Virus record (IMG/VR): IMGVR_UViG_3300048584_000058
Location: 1-40,804 of that record
From: a virus
Direction: 5' to 3' (one strand)
Length of the DNA stretch: 40,804 nucleotides
Positions 1-40,150 of this stretch are shown here, piece after piece. The notes under the pieces are model-generated. The model made no database searches, was not told the DNA's origin, and worked only from the letters and a program-made list of their open reading frames with translations. The translations under genes and the position numbers were made by a program. The stretch's first letter is position 1; each line of letters starts with the position of its first letter.

Positions 1-127
1 TAGAACACTGACGATTTATTAACTGATACTTACACAGTATTGACACAGCTTATAGTAGGAATATTATTCTCAATAATGATGTATATGTTGACAGCAGACC
101 ACGATACAAGAGGATATTTACAAAGAT
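1..127. repeat. 127-bp exact direct repeat, copy 1 (second copy 38436-38562)
   Basis: The first 127 bases are identical to 38436-38562; the first mismatch is A128 versus C38563, and it is silent in the overlapping reading frame. Similarity then continues imperfectly to about base 260. An exact match ending at 127 looks like the shared node of a k=127 assembly graph. That would make the window ends two branches leaving one node of a circular genome rather than a biological terminal repeat. This is inference from the length. Confidence 0.8.
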
Positions 128-176
128 AAAGCCATTAAAAAATAGTAAAAGAAGTACCAAAATATGTTGACAATAA
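1..176 (+). CDS. 3' part of hypothetical protein (allele A of the 38351-38611 gene)
   Basis: Reading begins inside the gene; the first whole codon is GAA at 3-5 and TAA is at 174-176. The encoded peptide is identical to the C-terminal 57 residues of the complete gene at 38351-38611, including TGA glycines, and the base differences are silent. The N-terminal 29 residues are missing only because the window starts here. It is basic, rich in Tyr, Asn and Arg, and of no recognised family. Confidence 0.75.
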
Positions 177-212
177 CCTACTTATCAACAAGCGACCCAA
201 TATATCTATACA

Positions 213-425
213 ATGATGATTACAAATGTAATTCTACTTCATAACCCATACAATCAAATGGAAACACCAACCCCACAGATACAACCGCCTAAAGAACCAA
301 CACAAGAACAACAGCAACTAGCTAACATCCTAGCACGAAGTCATCAATGACACTGTTGAGATAACTGTATGTGCGATAAATGCAAGGAGTATGGTATAGG
401 TATTTATTTTACCAATAATGAGTAA
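213..425 (+). CDS. Fused small zinc-ribbon-like protein (allele A)
   Basis: A 70-aa protein whose first 16 residues match the start of the 38648-38917 product and whose C-terminal half matches the zinc-ribbon-like product of 38886-39068. The C-terminus carries H-x-C-G-D-N-C-M-C-D-K-C, with Cys spacing CxxxCxCxxC that could bind zinc. Relative to the other allele, the sequence between the two genes has been lost in frame, making one chimeric ORF. TGA encodes two glycines flanking the first Cys. The function is unknown; a metal-binding regulator or adaptor is possible. Confidence 0.65.
375..410 (+). repeat. 36-bp seam repeat, copy 1 (others 1120-1155 and 39009-39044)
   Basis: The same 36 bases occur three times. 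Copies at 375-410 and 39009-39044 encode the end of a zinc-ribbon-like protein (residues DKCKEYGIGIYF). The copy at 1120-1155 lies outside any complete gene, just before the next start codon. Each copy abuts a point where allele A and allele B carry different genes, so it marks a cassette-exchange seam. Confidence 0.8.
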
Positions 426-2222: not shown

Positions 2223-2290
2223 AAACAAACACATAGTAATAAATACCCATTACTAACCAAACAAAATGCAATATCAATAGCACTCCACAT
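2213..2290 (-). CDS. Possible 25-aa hydrophobic peptide
   Basis: ATG at 2290, TAA at 2215-2213, overlapping the start of the 2222 gene by ten bases as in a coupled pair. It is almost entirely hydrophobic (one predicted membrane segment). The evidence is only the overlap geometry and the composition; a competing reading frame also spans this stretch. Confidence 0.25.
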
Positions 2291-2406
2291 CGCCCGCTAT
2301 GCGTTCTTGTTACGTAAGAGGTCACCAAATTTCCACAATATATTTTGATTATCATACTAGAAATCTAATATGACAATCATACATTGTAAAAACTTGGGTA
2401 TATAAA

Positions 2407-2428
2407 AAACTGTCACAATAGACAGTTT
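2407..2428. terminator. Bidirectional intrinsic terminator
   Basis: AAACTGTC (2407-2414) and GACAGTTT (2421-2428) form a perfect 8-bp stem with a 6-base loop. On the minus strand the stem runs directly into a T-rich tract, and on the plus strand it is followed by CTTTTATTATACTTTTT. It sits downstream of the zincin gene and upstream of the 2222 gene, so the latter may have separate expression. Confidence 0.7.
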
Positions 2429-2509
2429 CTTTTATTATACTTTTTATATGATTTTGAGGAATATAATCCATAAATATACTGATATTTAGCGATTACAATC
2501 CCATAATAT

Positions 2510-2851
2510 CTATACTTTTAGCGATTTGATTTTCTTATACGCCTCTCTTGTATAGAACTCCATAGCATAAGCATAATACTCATGAAGTGGCTCATTTCAG
2601 TATCATATATACTCTCCTATTTCCCTAGTATAGTGAGTTAGTTCGTGTATAAACCGATCAAGTCTAGGTTGTCATAGTCGTATATGTCCTCATATGCTTT
2701 CCTCATAGGTATACATAGCAAGAGACGTTCATCGGTCGGTAGTATCAAATCATTTCTTCTCCATAATAACACAAAATCTCTCATAGTCGCCTATATATAT
2801 AAATAATCTTTTCTCGTGGAAACTATCATAGATTTCATATTGTTTGAGCAT
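2510..2851 (-). CDS. Putative zincin metallopeptidase, 113 aa
   Basis: The start ATG shares its A with the TAA of the upstream gene. Residues 69-73 are H-E-L-T-H, the HExxH zinc-binding signature, and a glutamate-rich helix (EYYAYAMEF) follows about 17 residues later and could give the third ligand. At 113 aa it is a minimal zincin. Its position at the end of the virion/lysis operon would suit processing of a phage or host surface protein, but the substrate is unknown. TGA encodes glycine at several sites, including next to the motif. Confidence 0.6.
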
Positions 2852-20038: not shown

Positions 20039-21220
20039 TTACGCTACTAGGTCAAGCGAAAACATTCTTTTTGCTCACTCATCGAAAGTCTTAACTCCGT
20101 ACAAGTCGTAAGCCAAGATGTTGTATCCTGTCTTTTCTGGTACTTTGTTAAATTGTACTGTTGGAGCGATTTGCATCACTAGATCAATAGCACCCTTTCT
20201 ACAAGCAATTGCTTTTGCTCTTTGTGTACCGAATGAAGTATTAGAACCAGCTTCAGCGTAAGTTGTCTTACCAGAAGTTCTAAATCTTACATTTTGTGTT
20301 GATACAACAGCAGCAGCAATATTTAAGTTTTGGCTCAATGTATCTCTATTTGCTTGTGATACAGCGATGTATGTTGAAGCTCATGGAGTACCTGTACCTG
20401 TTACAGCCAATACGATATTAGCAGCGGTCAAAGCAGCAGATGCACCAAGAGAGATTTCTCAAGCAACAGCAGCAGTACCAGCGGCTCTAAATGTGAACAC
20501 AACACCACCGATAGTAAATGTATCAGCAGCGGTAGGATTGCCAGCTAGAGTCAAAGTTACTTCGTGCAATACATTGTTTGAACGATATACCTCAAATCCA
20601 TTGTAAAGTCTACCAACAAACCCATTTACGAGAGTGCTGTCAGCTTTTTCATATCCTGATAATACCATAGATTTAGCCATATTAGATATAGCCAATGGTG
20701 GTACTACGAGTTGTCGTGGAGCGTCATCCTCAATATCTTCTTGAAACATTGCAGCTTGCAAGTCAGAGAATACTGATTGTGCATTAGCAGCAGCCAAAGC
20801 GATAGGATTACCAGCTGTTCACCCGATACTTCCGTCATCAAATGTGAACCCAGCATTCAATACTTCAGCCAATACTGTTTGGTCGATTTGGTTACCCAAT
20901 CTGTAAGCAGCACGTTTTGTAAAGATAGCTTCAAGGTCGTATTTTGATTGTGCTTTGTCAAGATTATCAATATACACAGTTACGTCTTTTTGTTGATTGA
21001 TAGTCATAAATTCATCTTGCGATGTTGGGTATTGAACTGTACCTCCAGTTACTCTTGAGTAGTTGTTTACTCTTAGGTCTCCCTGAATAGGTCTGTGTAC
21101 TACATCCCCTGCAGATAAACCAGCTCTTTCTTCTTGGTTAGCAATTTTCATTGAAACCATTGTTCTTTGTTTGATCACTTGAATTCTCTTTGACCAGATC
21201 TCTGGAAAAAATTGATCCAT
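20039..21220 (-). CDS. Major capsid protein (HK97-fold), 393 aa
   Basis: A long N-terminal capsid region includes FPEIWSKRIQVIKQRTMVS, AGDVVHRPIQGDL and ARKxxYRLGNQIDQTVLAEV-like helices typical of P22/HK97-type coat proteins. Residues about 228-285 (TFTIGGVVFTFRAAG and following) resemble a small surface-exposed beta insertion seen in other coat proteins. Only about 4 of 31 glycines use TGA, far fewer than in neighbouring genes. It follows the scaffold gene with a 58-base AT-rich leader and is likely the most highly expressed gene. Confidence 0.8.
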
Positions 21221-24116: not shown

Positions 24117-25472
24117 CTAGAAAAGTACACTATTATTGTCTATTGATACAATTACTGTATTATTTGTTGTCGCTGGCCGTAATTCATAGTACATTCTCAT
24201 CATTACACAATCAGCACGATCAGGACTTCTTCATATTCTTCTCTTCATATCTTCTTTACTCTCTAATTGTATCTTCTGGTCGTTCTCATTCTTGAGTAAT
24301 ATGTTTGATAACTCTTGCATTAGTTTGTCTTTATGCTTTCATCACATATTCAACCTGACCATTCTCTTTTCTGCCAGCTCTTGTAATTTGAAATAACACT
24401 GTGTCTTTAGATTACTAAAGTTCTTTGTCTCTCAAGCTCTCTGTATCGCTCTTGCATTGTTTATGAATTGCGTGCATCATCTTAGTTGATCTGCAACTCA
24501 TCATCATACTCAATCACTATCAATACATATATTACGTCTTGGCACCTTGTATTCACTCTCAAGCTCTCTAATTACATTAGCAGTTAAATCAGTTGTCTGT
24601 CATTGATATTCATACTCTTTCAACTGCTCTAATCATTCCCAGTATGTAATAAATGTTGTATCATTTCAAAGCCTAGCAACATCACATATAAGATATCTTC
24701 AATCTTTCTTCTCTACATTGCTAGTAAATAAATCACTAATCTCATCATATCTAAATAGCTTCCCCGTATTGTCATCATAGTCAAAGTTTCAATATAATAG
24801 TCTCTGTCTTGTTATCTCATCTGCCTTCTCTAATTGTTCTATATAATTCTTATCTATGTGCTTATTGTCTATTGCCAATGCTGGTATAAATTGCCTGTAT
24901 GGTTGCAATACTCAATCTCTATATGGTTTGTAGTATCTCTCGTAAACGTGTCACTTATCAGGATTAAACGTCTCTAGTATCTTGGGTTTAAGTCAATGCT
25001 TAGTGTTGTTTTGTCTTCCGCACCTTGTATTCAATATCATTATTGCCTGCGAGTCAACTTCATTACTCTCATCTATAAAGCCTCACGTTAATTCAAGAGA
25101 TCAAAATCTTGTATATAATGGGTCGCTTGGTTGATATGCCAAATCCAACAACAATATCTCACTTCAATTCTCAAATCTAATAGTATTGTCTTGCTGGTTG
25201 AGCTTTCCCTTGTTTGCATCAGGAATATCATAATCAGCCAAGAACTTGAAATATGTATTGAGTGTTGTTCTCTTTAGATTAGTCAACTCCTTTCTTCAGA
25301 AAAACCACCTCGTTCATTCATACTTGCTTGCCATCATCCAGACTCGCATCACTCATAGATAACTCTTCCCTCCTCAAGCTCATCATCAATATCAAATCTC
25401 TGTAGTTATCTCATCCATAAGATACTGCATTGCTAATCATTGCTTCTTACTGAATTGTAACTCTAATCTCAT
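24117..25472 (-). CDS. terL: Terminase large subunit, 451 aa
   Basis: ATPase motifs: Walker A at residues 29-37 (GGGAGGGKS, with five of these glycines TGA-encoded), Walker B at 132-138 (FIDESNE). Nuclease-domain acidic residues follow in CDVARLGNDTT (about residue 248), CIDSDGVGGG (about 302) and DRADCVM near the C-terminus. This is the two-domain arrangement of headful or cos packaging motors. It overlaps the small subunit by 10 bases and ends in tandem stops TAG-TAA. About 85% of its glycines are TGA. Confidence 0.93.
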
Positions 25473-25861
25473 ATTATGATTTTTATCTCATCAATTTTCT
25501 TTATAGCTCAATCCTTATCAGTAACATCTCATCATAGAACAGTTACTCTTGCCATATCATCTTTCACTATATCTTTAGCAAGTTGCATATCTCATCTCTC
25601 GAGCTTATTCTTTTCTTCTATCTCATCAAGATATCTATCAAATAATGCTCAAACTCTTTTTATTCTCTCCCTCGCATTTCCCACTATATAAGCGATAGTT
25701 GGGTCTTTAGTTCAGCTTTGTTCAACTTCTTTCAACGAACTATTAACAGCACCAAGAGATATATTTGTCTCTTTTGCTATTTCCCTTTGTGTTTTGTTTG
25801 GATTAACCGCAATTACTTCGGCAACCTTTCATATGTTTTTCCTCTTATCTACTCTTACCAT
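25463..25861 (-). CDS. Terminase small subunit (putative), 132 aa
   Basis: N-terminal HTH-like region (RKNIGKVAEVIAVNPNKTQ, then REIAKETNISLGAVNSSLK) followed by a helical oligomerisation region and a short basic/acidic tail. Position immediately upstream of, and overlapping, terL is the usual place for a DNA-recognition subunit. TGA glycines occur at the tail. The HTH assignment is good; the terminase role is inferred from location. Confidence 0.7.
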
Positions 25862-26474: not shown

Positions 26475-26693
26475 TTACATTTTTATTATTTGTAAAACAT
26501 CATACAATTCTCTCCTTAGTTGCTTGAATGGTTCTGTTTTTATTCTTCACAGAATACTTGCAAGAGATGCTTTTAGATGCCCTAGTGTTTTAGCATCTAT
26601 GTTTCAAGCAGTATACTCTTCTTGTAAAAGTTCTTTTAGCTCATTGTGTTTATCTAGGATTGAGTTTAACTCATCTTCGTTGTTTGTATTCAT
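26475..26693 (-). CDS. Hypothetical helical protein, 72 aa
   Basis: Predicted all-helical with polar/acidic character: residues DELNSILDKHNELKELLQEE, then HLKASLASILGRIKTEPFKQ. TGA glycines occur at GNIDA and LGRI. It is the first gene after the non-coding island on the leftward strand. Function unknown. Confidence 0.6.
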
Positions 26694-26714
26694 AATACAT
26701 ATTTACAATATACT

Positions 26715-26860
26715 CATATGGGATGGTTACGTTCATGTTGACTATCATCACTAAGTAGTAACAACCATAATTTACCATTCTCTAGTGCAGGCGTACGCCA
26801 TTCTAGTGGTGCGATGCTGTGTTATGTCTTACAGCTGATTATATGACATCATCCCATATG
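26715..26860. ncRNA. Structured non-coding element closed by a perfect 11-bp stem
   Basis: CATATGGGATG (26715-26725) pairs perfectly with CATCCCATATG (26850-26860). Read on the minus strand, the interior forms an ATGTC/GACAT stem near the 5' side, a GGCGTACGCC palindrome flanked by near-direct CACTAGAATGG repeats, and a GTTG...ACTA/TAGT...CAAC hairpin near the 3' side. No plausible CDS covers it. It lies beside the tRNA-like element. It could be a structured ncRNA, a split tRNA relative or a recombination site. Confidence 0.45.
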
Positions 26861-26898
26861 AATACATTGAGCGTATATTTCTCTTAAAACATACAAAC

Positions 26899-26982
26899 AG
26901 GGTGGGTAGGATTTTCACCTACATTGCCAGCCTTATGGTTTCCCATAGTTGAATACTGGTGTATTACTTATACGACCACCCT
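26899..26982 (-). tRNA. tRNA-like cloverleaf, anticodon UCA, with anticodon-loop insert (candidate UGA-reading tRNA-Gly)
   Basis: Read on the minus strand: acceptor AGGGTGG with CCACCCT (7 Watson-Crick pairs); two spacer bases TC; D arm GTAT/ATAC; anticodon stem CCAGT/GCTGG; loop starting ATTCAA, which puts UCA at the anticodon; variable CAAT; T stem GTAGG/CCTAC directly on the acceptor. A TATGG-GAAA-CCATA hairpin (about 16 nt in all with flanks) interrupts the loop after position 37, the canonical tRNA intron site. A 5-base D loop, T loop TGAAAAT and no encoded CCA make it degenerate. UCA pairs with UGA, glycine in this code. Confidence 0.6.
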
Positions 26983-27029
26983 ATATAACAAGCGGCATAC
27001 ATAGTATACCACCATTGTAATAATAAAAA

Positions 27030-27347
27030 CTATAAGTTATAGAATAGCCCGAACGCTACCCCTGCGAATAATCATACCAACATCCACATAATAGTATGTG
27101 CATTATTGATCTGCTTTATTTCATCAATCATTTCTTTTTGTTCTTCTTCAACCTTTTGCATAAATCATTCACTATACCACTGCTCGATATGTAATAAGTC
27201 CTCAGGTATCTTATCTTCATCACTAAAATGCATTGTAATATCGTCTCAAAGACCGCTTGTCGTGGTGAAAATTTTGTCAAACTTGAATGTTTTGTCTTCA
27301 AGGTGAGCGTTTACCTCTTCAACATCTTTTTTCTTCGATTTTGCCAT
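27030..27347 (-). CDS. C-tail-anchored membrane protein, 105 aa
   Basis: Acidic/helical soluble part (KSKKKDVEEVNAHLEDK, then EQWYSEGFMQKVEEEQKEM) and one C-terminal membrane helix (MWMLVGLFAGVAFGLFYNL). ATG at 27347, TAG at 27032-27030. It lies upstream of the tRNA-like element. Such tail-anchored phage proteins often modify the host envelope or replication site; no specific family recognised. Confidence 0.6.
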
Positions 27348-32333: not shown

Positions 32334-33458
32334 ATGATTAAGCAAATCAAAGATAAAATATTGTCTATAGATAATATAGACGAAAAAATAGATTTTATAA
32401 ATCAACTAAGAGCAGCAATACACGAGGTTTCTCCATTTAAAGACAACCCAGTTGATTTTGTAACCTGGATAAAGAACGATTGAGTAACTGCTAATGATTA
32501 CAATCCAAACGAAGTCGCACCACCAGAAATGGAGCTTTTGGAAATAAGCATTATGAACGACTGATATACACAACCTATAGTCTGATGGGGGAGAGATGAC
32601 AATGTTTTTGAAATAATAGACTGATTTCATAGACACAGGGTAGGCAAAGAAAGCAAGATTGTTTCGAAATGATTAATGTGATACTTACCAGTTGTAAATG
32701 TTAGAAAAGCACAACAAGACAAAAATGACAGGATCGCATCAACTATTAGACATAATCGCGCAAGATGAAAGCATAAGGTAGATGCAATGAGTGAAATAGT
32801 AATAGAATTAAAAAACAGAAACCGAAGAAATGAAAGAATAGCAAAAGAACTAGGTATGGACGAAGACGAGGTACTAAGACTATTACAAATATCATGACTA
32901 CAAGAAATGTTTATGGATGACGATTTCTCAAGAGCATGGGTTTCTGATGACGAAATAGAATGATTTGTTTGATTAGATGACACATTAGATGATGAGTTTA
33001 TAAAGTGAGTACGCACTGTAAATGTAGAAGATCCCGACAGAATATTTCACACATATGACAAATGGGAATGTTTTAAAAACTGATTTTATAAGCAAACCAT
33101 AGAATGAAAGAACCGCGATCTACTAGAAACAGAATTTGCAGAATTTTTTAAACAAGATTGACTATTTGAAATAACTTGAAATAAAGTTATATTAGAACGA
33201 AAGAACTCATGTGAACATTATTTAACAAACAAATGTATGAATAGAATTGCTTGGATGTGACAGGCTGCGGTTTGCTATCACACAAGAATACCAAACAAAT
33301 TTAGCTCTGGTTGGTTTTTGCTAGACATAGATACACAGCAAAAAAACAATCAAATAGCATTAAATATCATAAACACACGAATGAAAAACAATAATAGGCA
33401 AGAAATAACAATGAAAGATGCTATGGGATGAGTTGATAGACAGGTTAGTATTTATTAA
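32334..33458 (+). CDS. ParB-like protein, IbrB family, 374 aa
   Basis: The ParB/Srx-type core is visible: NPNEVAPPEMELLEISI, GYTQPIVGWGRDD, then IIDGFHRHRVG (residues 94-104, the family's DG-x-HR-type motif) and a helical HTH region (RRNERIAKELGMDEDEVLRLL). It is encoded directly before the PAPS-reductase-like gene, the standard IbrB-IbrA order in phages and islands. The DG-x-HR motif is also a feature of DndB-type proteins. Most glycines are TGA. Probably regulates or assists the partner. Confidence 0.75.
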
Positions 33459-33470
33459 TAATTATTCAAA

Positions 33471-34694
33471 ATGAAAAAATATATAGACATATCCGTTTAC
33501 GAAGCAACTAGGAAAAGAATATCGCTATCTTTTGATCTATTCGATAGATTATATATTTCTTATTCTGGGGGGAAGGATAGTACCGTGATGACACACATGG
33601 TATTAGATGAAGCTAGAAAGAGAAATAGAAAGGTTGGATTGCTTATTATTGACTTAGAGGCTCAATATATAGATACCATAAAGCACATTGAAGAGATGAT
33701 AGAGACATATAAGGATGTTATAGATCTTCATCGGTTTTGTGGGGAATTGTTGCTTAGAAATGCATTATCTACATTTGAGCCTAAGTGGGTTTGTTGGGAT
33801 GAAACAAAGAAAGAAGACTGGGTTAGAGAAAAGCCAAAACACGCATCCGATCTATCTCAATATGATTTTTATAAGCCAAAAATGGAGTTTGAGGAGATGA
33901 TGGTCTTATTTGGCGAGCGATATGGGAAATGAGAAGATGTGGGTGGGTTTATATGAATTAGGGCTGATGAGAGTTTGCATAGATATAGAGCAATAGTAAG
34001 TCAAAAGAAGTGAATAATGTATAATGATCTTAAATGGACTACTAAAGTTTCTAATGGCGTATATAATTTATATCCTATATATGATTGGAAAACTAGTGAT
34101 ATATGGATATTCCACTGAAAGTTTAAAGAGCTTACTTATAACAATGTTTATGAAAAAATGCTTAAGGCTGGGGTTAAGTTGTGAGACCAAAGGCTATGTC
34201 AACCATATTGAGACGACCAGAAAAAAGGCATATGGTTATATCAAATACTAGAGCCCAAGACCCGAGTTAAATTACTAAAAAGGGTGTCTGGCGTAAACTC
34301 ATGATCCTTATACATAAAAGAAAGGGGATCTATAAATTGAAATACATATATTACAAAGCCAGAAAATATGTCTTGGCAAAAGTATTGTAATTTTTTATTA
34401 AGCACTATGCCACCAAAAACAAGAGAGAATTACGCAAATAGATTTAAAATATTTATGGCTGGTTGGAAAAAAAGATGATATGAGAAAATACCAGATGAGG
34501 CACCACATGATTTAGAGGTTGCAGCACGAGTCCCATCCTGGAAAAGAATGTGTAGAAGCATCTTAAGGAATGATTATTATTGCAAATGACTAGGGCAAAC
34601 ACAGCCGAAGTCTGAAGCCTATATAAAACTAAAACAAATAAAAGAAAAAAGAAAGCTAGAAAAAACCATTATGTCAACACAAAAAGTCAATTAA
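33471..34694 (+). CDS. PP-loop ATPase, PAPS-reductase-like (IbrA family), 407 aa
   Basis: PP-loop SGGKDST at residues 32-38, followed by a conserved LEAQY and a C-terminal half (VSGVNSGSLY, MPPKTRENYANRF) like that of IbrA/DUF3440 proteins. Its ATP-pyrophosphatase core could adenylate or sulfurate a nucleic acid, as in DndC. It lies 12 bases after the ParB-like gene. The first 150 residues use only GGN for glycine while the C-terminal part uses TGA often, suggesting recent acquisition or a mosaic. Function in the phage is unproven. Confidence 0.75.
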
Positions 34695-38350: not shown

Positions 38351-38611
38351 ATGGAACTAACACTATTACAATGATATAACTTTCATAAATATTACGGTAG
38401 GGATGTTATATATAAAAACGAAAATATGTGAAAGCTAGAACACTGACGATTTATTAACTGATACTTACACAGTATTGACACAGCTTATAGTAGGAATATT
38501 ATTCTCAATAATGATGTATATGTTGACAGCAGACCACGATACAAGAGGATATTTACAAAGATCAAGCCATTAAAAAATAGTAAAAGAAGTACCAAAATAT
38601 GTTGACAATAA
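38351..38611 (+). CDS. Hypothetical protein, 86 aa (complete copy of the truncated gene at 1-176)
   Basis: ATG 38351 to TAA 38609-38611. Its last 57 codons recur at the window start. Basic, rich in Tyr/Asn/Arg (DSRPRYKRIFTKIKPLKNSK at the C-terminus). Four TGA glycines. Family not recognised. Confidence 0.65.
38436..38562. repeat. 127-bp exact direct repeat, copy 2
   Basis: Exact copy of 1-127; both lie in the same frame of the same gene. From base 38563 on, the two alleles diverge. See copy 1 for the interpretation. Confidence 0.8.
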
Positions 38612-38647
38612 CCTACTTATCAACAAGCGACCCAATATATCTATACA

Positions 38648-38917
38648 ATGATGATTACAAATGTAATTCTACTTCCTAACCTATACAATCAAATGCAACT
38701 CCTAGACAAAACACAAGATACTATCACACTAGAGCTTACCCACGATGAATTATATTTATGGGCAAAAGCACTAGACGAGTATGAAAAACAGAACTATCAA
38801 CGAGATGATAAGAAAAAGACTCTCGCAATGGAGATGAGTAGGTATATATGGAGAGTAAAGTATAATTTATATGATACAGCCACTAATGGAAACACAACAA
38901 CAAGCCAATGAGCCTAG
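38648..38917 (+). CDS. Hypothetical protein, 89 aa
   Basis: Helical and charged (ELTHDELYLWAKALDEYEKQ, then RDDKKKTLAMEMSRYIWRV). It overlaps the next gene by 32 bases. In allele A its 5' end is fused directly to the zinc-ribbon-like tail. No family recognised. Confidence 0.6.
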
Positions 38918-39672: not shown

Positions 39673-39885
39673 ATGAAACCACAACGACAATTCAACCTAG
39701 AGAAGATGGACACAGAACAACTAGAGAATAAGGTAAAAGACATTGTGCGATGTATCAAATGAGCTAAGAGTATGGAAAGTAGAGAAGCGTTTCTCTACCA
39801 ACTCGATGTAGCAAATAAGATACTAGAAACAAAGAAACAATTACTTCTTAACTTTGATACAAAAGATGGAGCATATGCAGACTAA
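39673..39885 (+). CDS. Hypothetical small protein (allele B), 70 aa
   Basis: Protein nearly identical to the 1170-1382 product, with mostly synonymous base differences, so this gene is under purifying selection in both alleles. An AT-rich leader (TATTTATCTTAAA) precedes it. An 11-base overlap with the next gene is conserved. Confidence 0.75.
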
Positions 39886-40150
39886 GTGTCCTAGATGTTG
39901 AAAAAGAAACGCGATGTTGCACACATGTACGCCAACAGATAGAGCAAGAGAAATAGAGGAAATACTAGAAACACTTAAGGAACACTGGTTAAACAATCAA
40001 TATCTTAGATTTTGACAGTTACTATTTGCTATATGATACCTAGAGAATGACGATAGTAACGATTGGGTATATTGAGCACCACTAAAGCTAAAAGACCCAT
40101 TCAATAAAAGCGATGAGATACTTTTAGAATTACTCAAGAAAGATGTTTAA
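39875..40150 (+). CDS. Zinc-knuckle small phage protein (allele B), 91 aa
   Basis: CPRC-G (5-9) plus H16/C18 and a central LRFGQLLFAIGYLE block, as in allele A; the 25 residues between differ. Ends TAA 40148-40150, eight bases inside the next gene. Confidence 0.7.

What the first reader, a model, noticed from the sequence alone, without database searches (positions are those of the whole stretch)
26899..26982. Phage tRNA-like element with anticodon UCA and an intron-like hairpin in the anticodon loop
A complete cloverleaf is readable on the minus strand with anticodon UCA, the one needed to read UGA as glycine. A roughly 16-nt hairpin insert sits at the canonical 37/38 intron position, and the D and T loops are non-canonical. 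A phage-encoded decoder for a host-specific recoded codon, with a miniature intron, would be new. The degenerate elbow means it may instead be a tRNA mimic or decoy.
Basis: partly seen in the sequence, partly recalled or inferred. Interest (0 to 1): 0.85.

Follow-up and report, generated by a model that had tools for sequence, protein, structure and literature searches.

The report
Phage tRNA-Trp relative, anticodon loop interrupted

Summary
On the minus strand at 26982-26898 lies a complete cloverleaf with anticodon UCA and a 16-nt hairpin in the anticodon loop. Rfam's tRNA model scores it 39.9 bits (cut-off 29); the cloverleaf is also the minimum-energy fold, and nothing comparable turned up in shuffled or related DNA. 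ARAGORN and the default Rfam scan miss it.
The second half does not. Every host and phage tRNA(UCA) seen here has G1:C72, G3:C70 and U73; this one has A1:U72, G2:C71, G3:C70 and G73, the Trp pattern. Its closest match among 125 canonical tRNAs is tRNA-Trp(CCG) of a host-type genome that reads CGA/CGG as Trp; tRNA-Gly(UCA) ranks 63rd and 85th. A working tRNA-Trp(UCA) would misread hundreds of UGA(Gly) codons. The elbow is lost on both sides, unlike nearly all 109 host tRNAs.
No relative carries it, so the insert cannot be tested by covariation, and no known intron type fits. Best reading: a tRNA-Trp-derived, non-decoding tRNA mimic (0.42), with a recently inactivated tRNA as main rival (0.30). 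An odd single case of moderate interest.

The parts
26898..26982 (-). tRNA-like gene, whole cloverleaf with insert (85 nt, no encoded CCA)
   Evidence: RF00005 39.9 bits; MFE = cloverleaf, z -3.04; insert-tolerant cloverleaf search
26976..26982 (-). acceptor stem 5' strand AGGGUGG (A1, G2, G3)
   Evidence: pairs with 26899-26905; Trp-type identity pairs
26961..26973 (-). D arm GUAU-AAGUA-AUAC; 5-nt loop without G18 G19
   Evidence: 107 of 109 host tRNAs have GG there
26955..26959 (-). anticodon stem 5' strand CCAGU; with GCUGG at 26927-26931 identical to host-type tRNA-Trp(CCG), U.G pair included
26950..26952 (-). anticodon UCA (loop AUUCAAC at 26954-26948)
   Evidence: comparison with tRNA(UCA) loops
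26932..26947 (-). 16-nt insert UAUGG-GAAA-CCAUA-AG, a 5-bp hairpin with a GNRA tetraloop
   Evidence: unique in the window and in the loci held at that time
26906..26922 (-). T arm GUAGG-UGAAAAU-CCUAC; loop lacks UUC
   Evidence: 109 of 109 host tRNAs have UUCRA
26898..26905 (-). acceptor 3' strand CCACCCU and discriminator G73
26706..26869 (-). separate strongly folding region 28 nt downstream of the tRNA: 20-nt terminal arms (90% complementary) around three inner hairpins; function unknown, link to the tRNA inferred from position only
   Evidence: no relative
26991..27013 (-). 10-bp hairpin just upstream of the tRNA, terminator-like in a simple scan

Best explanation
A phage RNA descended from, or built like, the tryptophan tRNAs of its Absconditabacteria-type host, kept as a folded cloverleaf but not used for decoding. 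Shown by sequence: all four stems intact, Trp-type acceptor end (A1:U72, G2:C71, G3:C70, G73), anticodon UCA, decoding loop interrupted by a GNRA hairpin, D and T loops stripped of the elbow contacts. Inferred: the hairpin and missing elbow keep it out of the ribosome, which protects a phage that uses UGA as glycine in hundreds of places, while the intact acceptor/T-stem stack can still be bound by tRNA-handling proteins (RNase P, RNase Z, CCA-adding enzyme, possibly TrpRS or an anticodon nuclease). The likeliest jobs are a processing signal in the transcript that also holds the folded RNA downstream, or a decoy.
For: Real tRNA fold. Acceptor end of the Trp type: A1:U72 with G73 was found only in tRNA-Trp among the host tRNAs (and by reading). 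Closest of 125 canonical tRNAs is tRNA-Trp(CCG), 31 of 45 positions against a median of 19; tRNA-Gly(UCA) ranks 63 and 85. The four best pairwise alignments in a chosen set of 11 are Trp tRNAs. Without the insert it aligns with four Trp tRNAs with 98.8% of cells paired and 13 of 17 pairs changed on both sides, 0 of 500 shuffles, so stems were kept while their sequence changed. Elbow lost on both sides while host tRNAs keep it. UGA is Gly throughout, so a working tRNA-Trp(UCA) would be harmful. A strongly folding RNA lies 28 nt downstream in the same intergenic gap.
Against: No transcript, processing or protein-binding data. No relative was found in the viral contigs tested, phage records, 353 class-level genomes or 19 TerL-related records, so long-term conservation cannot be shown. 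The compensatory changes may predate loss of function. Second- and third-ranked tRNAs are Asp and Gln, which also bear G73, so part of the Trp resemblance rests on few positions.
Confidence: 0.42

Rival explanations
1. Recently inactivated phage tRNA: a tRNA-Trp-type gene was killed by the hairpin insertion and by loop mutations and is on its way out.
For: Insert, elbow loss and an anticodon that would be toxic in this code all point to lost function. No TerL relative keeps the gene. Other tRNA-like genes with anticodon-loop inserts turn up singly and without conserved relatives, for example L247 and L459, and one in an unrelated phage, L534.
Against: All 21 base pairs are intact, the hairpin is perfect, and stems differ from the nearest tRNA by paired changes; free decay should have broken some pairs, although a very recent loss would not.
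Confidence: 0.3
2. Functional tRNA after removal of the 16-nt insert by an unknown splicing activity, charged with Trp because of its identity set.
For: Removal of the insert gives a stable canonical cloverleaf with a 7-nt loop, z -3.76. Trp-type acceptor.
Against: It would put Trp at UGA, which is Gly throughout this phage. No known splicing system fits. Elbow missing.
Confidence: 0.1
3. One reading: a phage tRNA-Gly(UCA) with a miniature intron that reads UGA as glycine.
For: Anticodon UCA, loop AUUCAAC close to the loops of tRNA-Gly(UCA), UGA is the main Gly codon.
Against: Lacks G1:C72, C2:G71 and U73 (PMC8629427). Gly(UCA) is no closer than a middling tRNA. Genomes of the host type already carry an intron-free tRNA-Gly(UCA). 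No intron type fits.
Confidence: 0.08
4. Anticodon-nuclease-resistant or decoy phage tRNA in the sense of van den Berg et al. 2023: the altered anticodon loop blocks or distracts a host tRNase.
For: The anticodon loop is altered in the extreme, as that hypothesis expects (PMC10264068); the tRNA body resembles host Trp tRNAs.
Against: No host nuclease is known here; a resistant replacement tRNA would still have to decode, which the insert should prevent.
Confidence: 0.08
5. Chance cloverleaf in AT-rich DNA.
For: Default tools miss it.
Against: 39.9 bits in RF00005, z -3.04, clear gap to background in about 1.8 Mb.
Confidence: 0.02

Closest known systems
Host-type tRNA-Trp(CCG) and tRNA-Trp(UCG), which read reassigned CGG/CGA (Absconditabacteria; Shulgina and Eddy 2021, PMC8629427)
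   Same: G73, A1:U72 (G1:U72 in the UCG form), anticodon stem CCAGU/GCUGG identical to the CCG form, 4-nt variable loop
   Different: Anticodon UCA instead of CCG/UCG, 16-nt hairpin in the loop, no elbow nucleotides
tRNA-Gly(UCA) of Gracilibacteria/Absconditabacteria
   Same: Anticodon UCA, loop xUUCAAC
   Different: Acceptor pairs 1:72 and 2:71 and discriminator differ; canonical elbow and no insert in the host genes
Phage suppressor tRNA-Trp(UCA) of code-4 phages (as described in PMC10746230)
   Same: Trp-type acceptor with UCA anticodon, phage-encoded
   Different: Those phages read UGA as Trp; this one reads it as Gly, and its loop is interrupted
Phage tRNAs with altered anticodon loops (van den Berg et al. 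2023, PMC10264068)
   Same: Phage tRNA with an altered anticodon loop
   Different: There the changes are mutations, no insertion or intron is mentioned, and decoding is kept
tRNA-like processing signals (t-elements of plant mitochondria; own knowledge)
   Same: tRNA-shaped acceptor/T stack without need for a working anticodon
   Different: Not shown to be cleaved; phage, not mitochondrion

Membership tests
tRNA (RF00005) | Full-length match above the curated cut-off, cloverleaf fold | tested here: met
   39.9 bits against 29, model 1-71; MFE cloverleaf
tRNA (RF00005) | Elbow nucleotides: GG in the D loop, UUC in the T loop | tested here: not met
   AAGUA and UGAAAAU, against 107 of 109 and 109 of 109 host tRNAs
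tRNA-Gly(UCA) of code-25 bacteria | G1:C72, C2:G71, G3:C70, U73 | tested here: not met
   A1:U72, G2:C71, G3:C70, G73 (rule in PMC8629427)
tRNA-Gly(UCA) of code-25 bacteria | Anticodon UCA | tested here: met
tRNA-Trp | G73 with A/G1:U72 | tested here: met
   PMC8629427
tRNA-Trp | Anticodon for a Trp codon of this code (CCA, UCG, CCG) | tested here: not met
   Anticodon UCA; UGA is Gly
tRNA-Trp | Charging by TrpRS | not testable with these tools
   needs aminoacylation assay
Intron-containing tRNA (group I, bacterial) | Self-splicing intron core of about 200 nt or more | tested here: not met
   Insert is 16 nt; no intron family in Rfam scans
Intron-containing tRNA (archaeal/eukaryotic type) | Bulge-helix-bulge at the exon-intron joints | tested here: not met
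   Predicted loop is 7 nt against 2 nt around a hairpin
Phage UGA suppressor tRNA | UGA read as its amino acid (Trp, by identity) in phage genes | tested here: not met
   UGA columns are Gly, Trp near zero
Nuclease-resistant or decoy phage tRNA | Host tRNase that targets the cognate host tRNA | not testable with these tools
   host not identified at genome level

The most novel reading that the evidence does not exclude
A phage-encoded, splicing-gated tRNA-Trp(UCA): silent while the hairpin is in place, and once a so far unknown bacterial or phage activity removes 16 nt it inserts Trp at UGA(Gly) codons, a code-breaking weapon or late switch in a host that reads UGA as glycine.
Probability: 0.04. 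Interest if true: 0.9.

Novelty: new variant of a known kind. Interest (0 to 1): 0.42.

Why it matters
Phage tRNAs in recoded hosts test how code changes spread between virus and host. Here the anticodon says glycine and the body says tryptophan, in a phage lineage that seems to share two host recodings (UGA to Gly, CGA/CGG to Trp). Knowing whether such an interrupted tRNA is spliced, used as a mimic or simply dead would show whether small anticodon-loop inserts in phage tRNAs, which standard finders miss, have a function.

Tried and rejected
Search by the DnaB gene: nothing useful. Terminase relatives and whole records of 19 of them: none has a similar element; most lack tRNAs. BLAST of the 346-nt intergenic region against phages, 353 class-level genomes and all loci held: chance hits only; the spliced tRNA against the same genomes: none. 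Folding of gaps upstream of TerL in relatives: no counterpart of the downstream structured RNA. Idea of a lineage-wide family of tRNA mini-introns: candidates L247, L459, L236/L248 and L408 share no position or hairpin; L247 and L459 have no relatives in the class genomes searched; and an ordinary phage (L534) has a similar insert, so it was dropped. Missing CCA as evidence of non-function was dropped because genome G043 also lacks encoded CCA in many tRNAs. A code-4 reading (UGA as Trp), suggested by the acceptor end, was tested and rejected.

Full report
Observation. The minus strand at 26982-26898 folds into a complete cloverleaf: AGGGUGG / U C / GUAU-AAGUA-AUAC / A / CCAGU-[AUUCAAC UAUGGGAAACCAUAAG]-GCUGG / CAAU / GUAGG-UGAAAAU-CCUAC / CCACCCU / G. 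Rfam's tRNA model gives 39.9 bits over its whole length against a cut-off of 29. ARAGORN and whole-window Rfam scans miss it, presumably because the interrupted loop defeats their filters. The cloverleaf is both MFE and centroid, z -3.04. An insert-tolerant finder scored it 51.4, while no non-tRNA in 483 kb of code-25 DNA or its shuffles reached 45 and the next non-tRNA in another 1.3 Mb scored 44.6. It lies in an intergenic gap of the minus-strand genes, between a 105-aa gene (27030-27347) and a 72-aa gene (26475-26693), 1.4 kb upstream of the large terminase gene.

Code. Main genes of the window use UGA 431 times in frame and end only in UAA or UAG. At UGA positions of TerL, TGA-free homologues have Gly in most rows and Trp almost never. 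In NinG, DnaB and the ParB-like gene Gly is also the commonest residue, and Trp is never seen at a UGA position outside TerL. UGA is glycine. CGA/CGG codons of TerL in the relatives often fall on invariant Trp columns; in the window itself TerL codon 56 faces Trp in 78 homologues, and four of the five CGR sites with homologues in the ParB-like, PAPS-reductase-like and Rad52-like genes face Trp in a homologue, while a few sites elsewhere face Arg, Lys or Gln. This matches the code described for Absconditabacteria (PMC8629427), so the host is probably of that group; for this particular phage the CGR part rests on few sites.

Identity. Two Gracilibacteria genomes (G001, G002) and an Absconditabacteria-type genome (G043, with a related TerL that has 26 UGA and CGA at Trp columns; the taxon is my inference from its code) supplied 109 distinct tRNAs. 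All tRNA(UCA) among them, including one on a phage contig (L248), have G1:C72, G3:C70 and U73; three of four also have C2:G71. The window tRNA has A1:U72, G2:C71, G3:C70 and G73. A1:U72 with G73 was found only in tRNA-Trp (several G043 tRNAs were read by eye, where the automatic parse was shifted by one base). Over 45 stem and key positions its best match among 125 canonical tRNAs is tRNA-Trp(CCG) of G043, 31 of 45 against a median of 19; the anticodon stem CCAGU/GCUGG is identical. Two tRNA-Gly(UCA) rank 63 and 85. The margin over second place (Asp, 29) is small, so descent from tRNA-Trp is likely, not proven.

Structure under selection. Aligned without the insert to four Trp tRNAs, 98.8% of cells pair and 13 of 17 pairs show changes on both sides, with 0 of 500 shuffles reaching this (the D stem was left out because its alignment was shifted, and four of the five rows are ordinary tRNAs). 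The stems therefore changed by paired substitutions at some time. The elbow did not survive: the D loop has no GG and the T loop no UUC, whereas 107 and 109 of 109 host tRNAs have them.

The insert. Sixteen bases, a 5-bp hairpin with a GAAA tetraloop plus AG. By comparison with UCA loops CUUCAAC, UUUCAAC and CUUCAGC it sits best after position 38. Removing it restores a 7-nt loop and a stable cloverleaf. It is far too short for a self-splicing intron, forms no bulge-helix-bulge, and has no copy elsewhere in the window or in the loci held. No related phage or class-level genome carries the element with or without it, so no covariation test of the hairpin is possible. Single tRNA-like genes with unrelated anticodon-loop inserts occur elsewhere, in host contig L247, plasmid-like contig L459 and an ordinary phage, L534, so an interrupted anticodon loop alone is not evidence of a splicing system.

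Mechanism. A Trp-charged tRNA with UCA would misread glycine codons all over this phage, and a Gly-charged one is not supported by its acceptor end. With the elbow gone and a hairpin beside the anticodon, ordinary decoding is unlikely. What is kept is the acceptor/T stack and the overall shape. I therefore favour a non-decoding mimic, either a processing signal in a transcript that also contains the strongly folding RNA 28 nt downstream (26869-26706, z -3.76; whole gap z -4.27) or a decoy. A recently dead gene is the main rival. These functions are inferred, not shown.

Verdict. Observation confirmed; interpretation partly supported (UGA is Gly, anticodon UCA, insert real) but the glycine decoder with a mini-intron is unlikely. 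New variant of a known kind, moderate interest.

Noticed in passing
window TerL codon 56 (gene 24117-25511, minus); L002, L005, L008, L010, L011, L025, L037, L439: CGA/CGG codons fall on Trp columns of TGA-free homologues: these phages seem to share the host's second recoding (CGA/CGG to Trp) besides UGA to Gly. In the library searched, only the 2021 code survey held all of the terms phage, Absconditabacteria, CGG and tryptophan.
   Followed up: partly
window 26706-26869 (minus): Strong RNA fold with 20-nt terminal arms and three inner hairpins just 3' of the tRNA, no relative found.
   Followed up: partly
window 2225-2519 (minus): Intergenic region with a very long palindromic hairpin (about 33 bp), z -6.8; function unknown, perhaps a terminator.
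   Followed up: no
window 1-263 vs 38436-38698; 1170-1572 vs 39673-40069: Both ends of the record carry similar DNA (98% and 86%): a diverged duplication or strain variants at a wrap-around, not a plain terminal repeat.
   Followed up: no
window 20039-21220 (minus): Major capsid gene uses UGA for Gly only 4 times against 27 GGN, while most neighbours prefer UGA.
   Followed up: no
window 32334-34694 (+): ParB-like gene next to a PAPS-reductase/DUF3440 gene, an arrangement like IbrB-IbrA pairs (name from own knowledge).
   Followed up: no
L534 4696-4791 (+): Phage tRNA with canonical arms and a 22-nt hairpin insert in the anticodon loop, among several other tRNAs.
   Followed up: partly
L247 72-171; L459 280-387: tRNA-like genes with large anticodon-loop inserts in a Gracilibacteria contig and in a plasmid-like contig of G043; no relatives in the class genomes searched.
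   Followed up: partly
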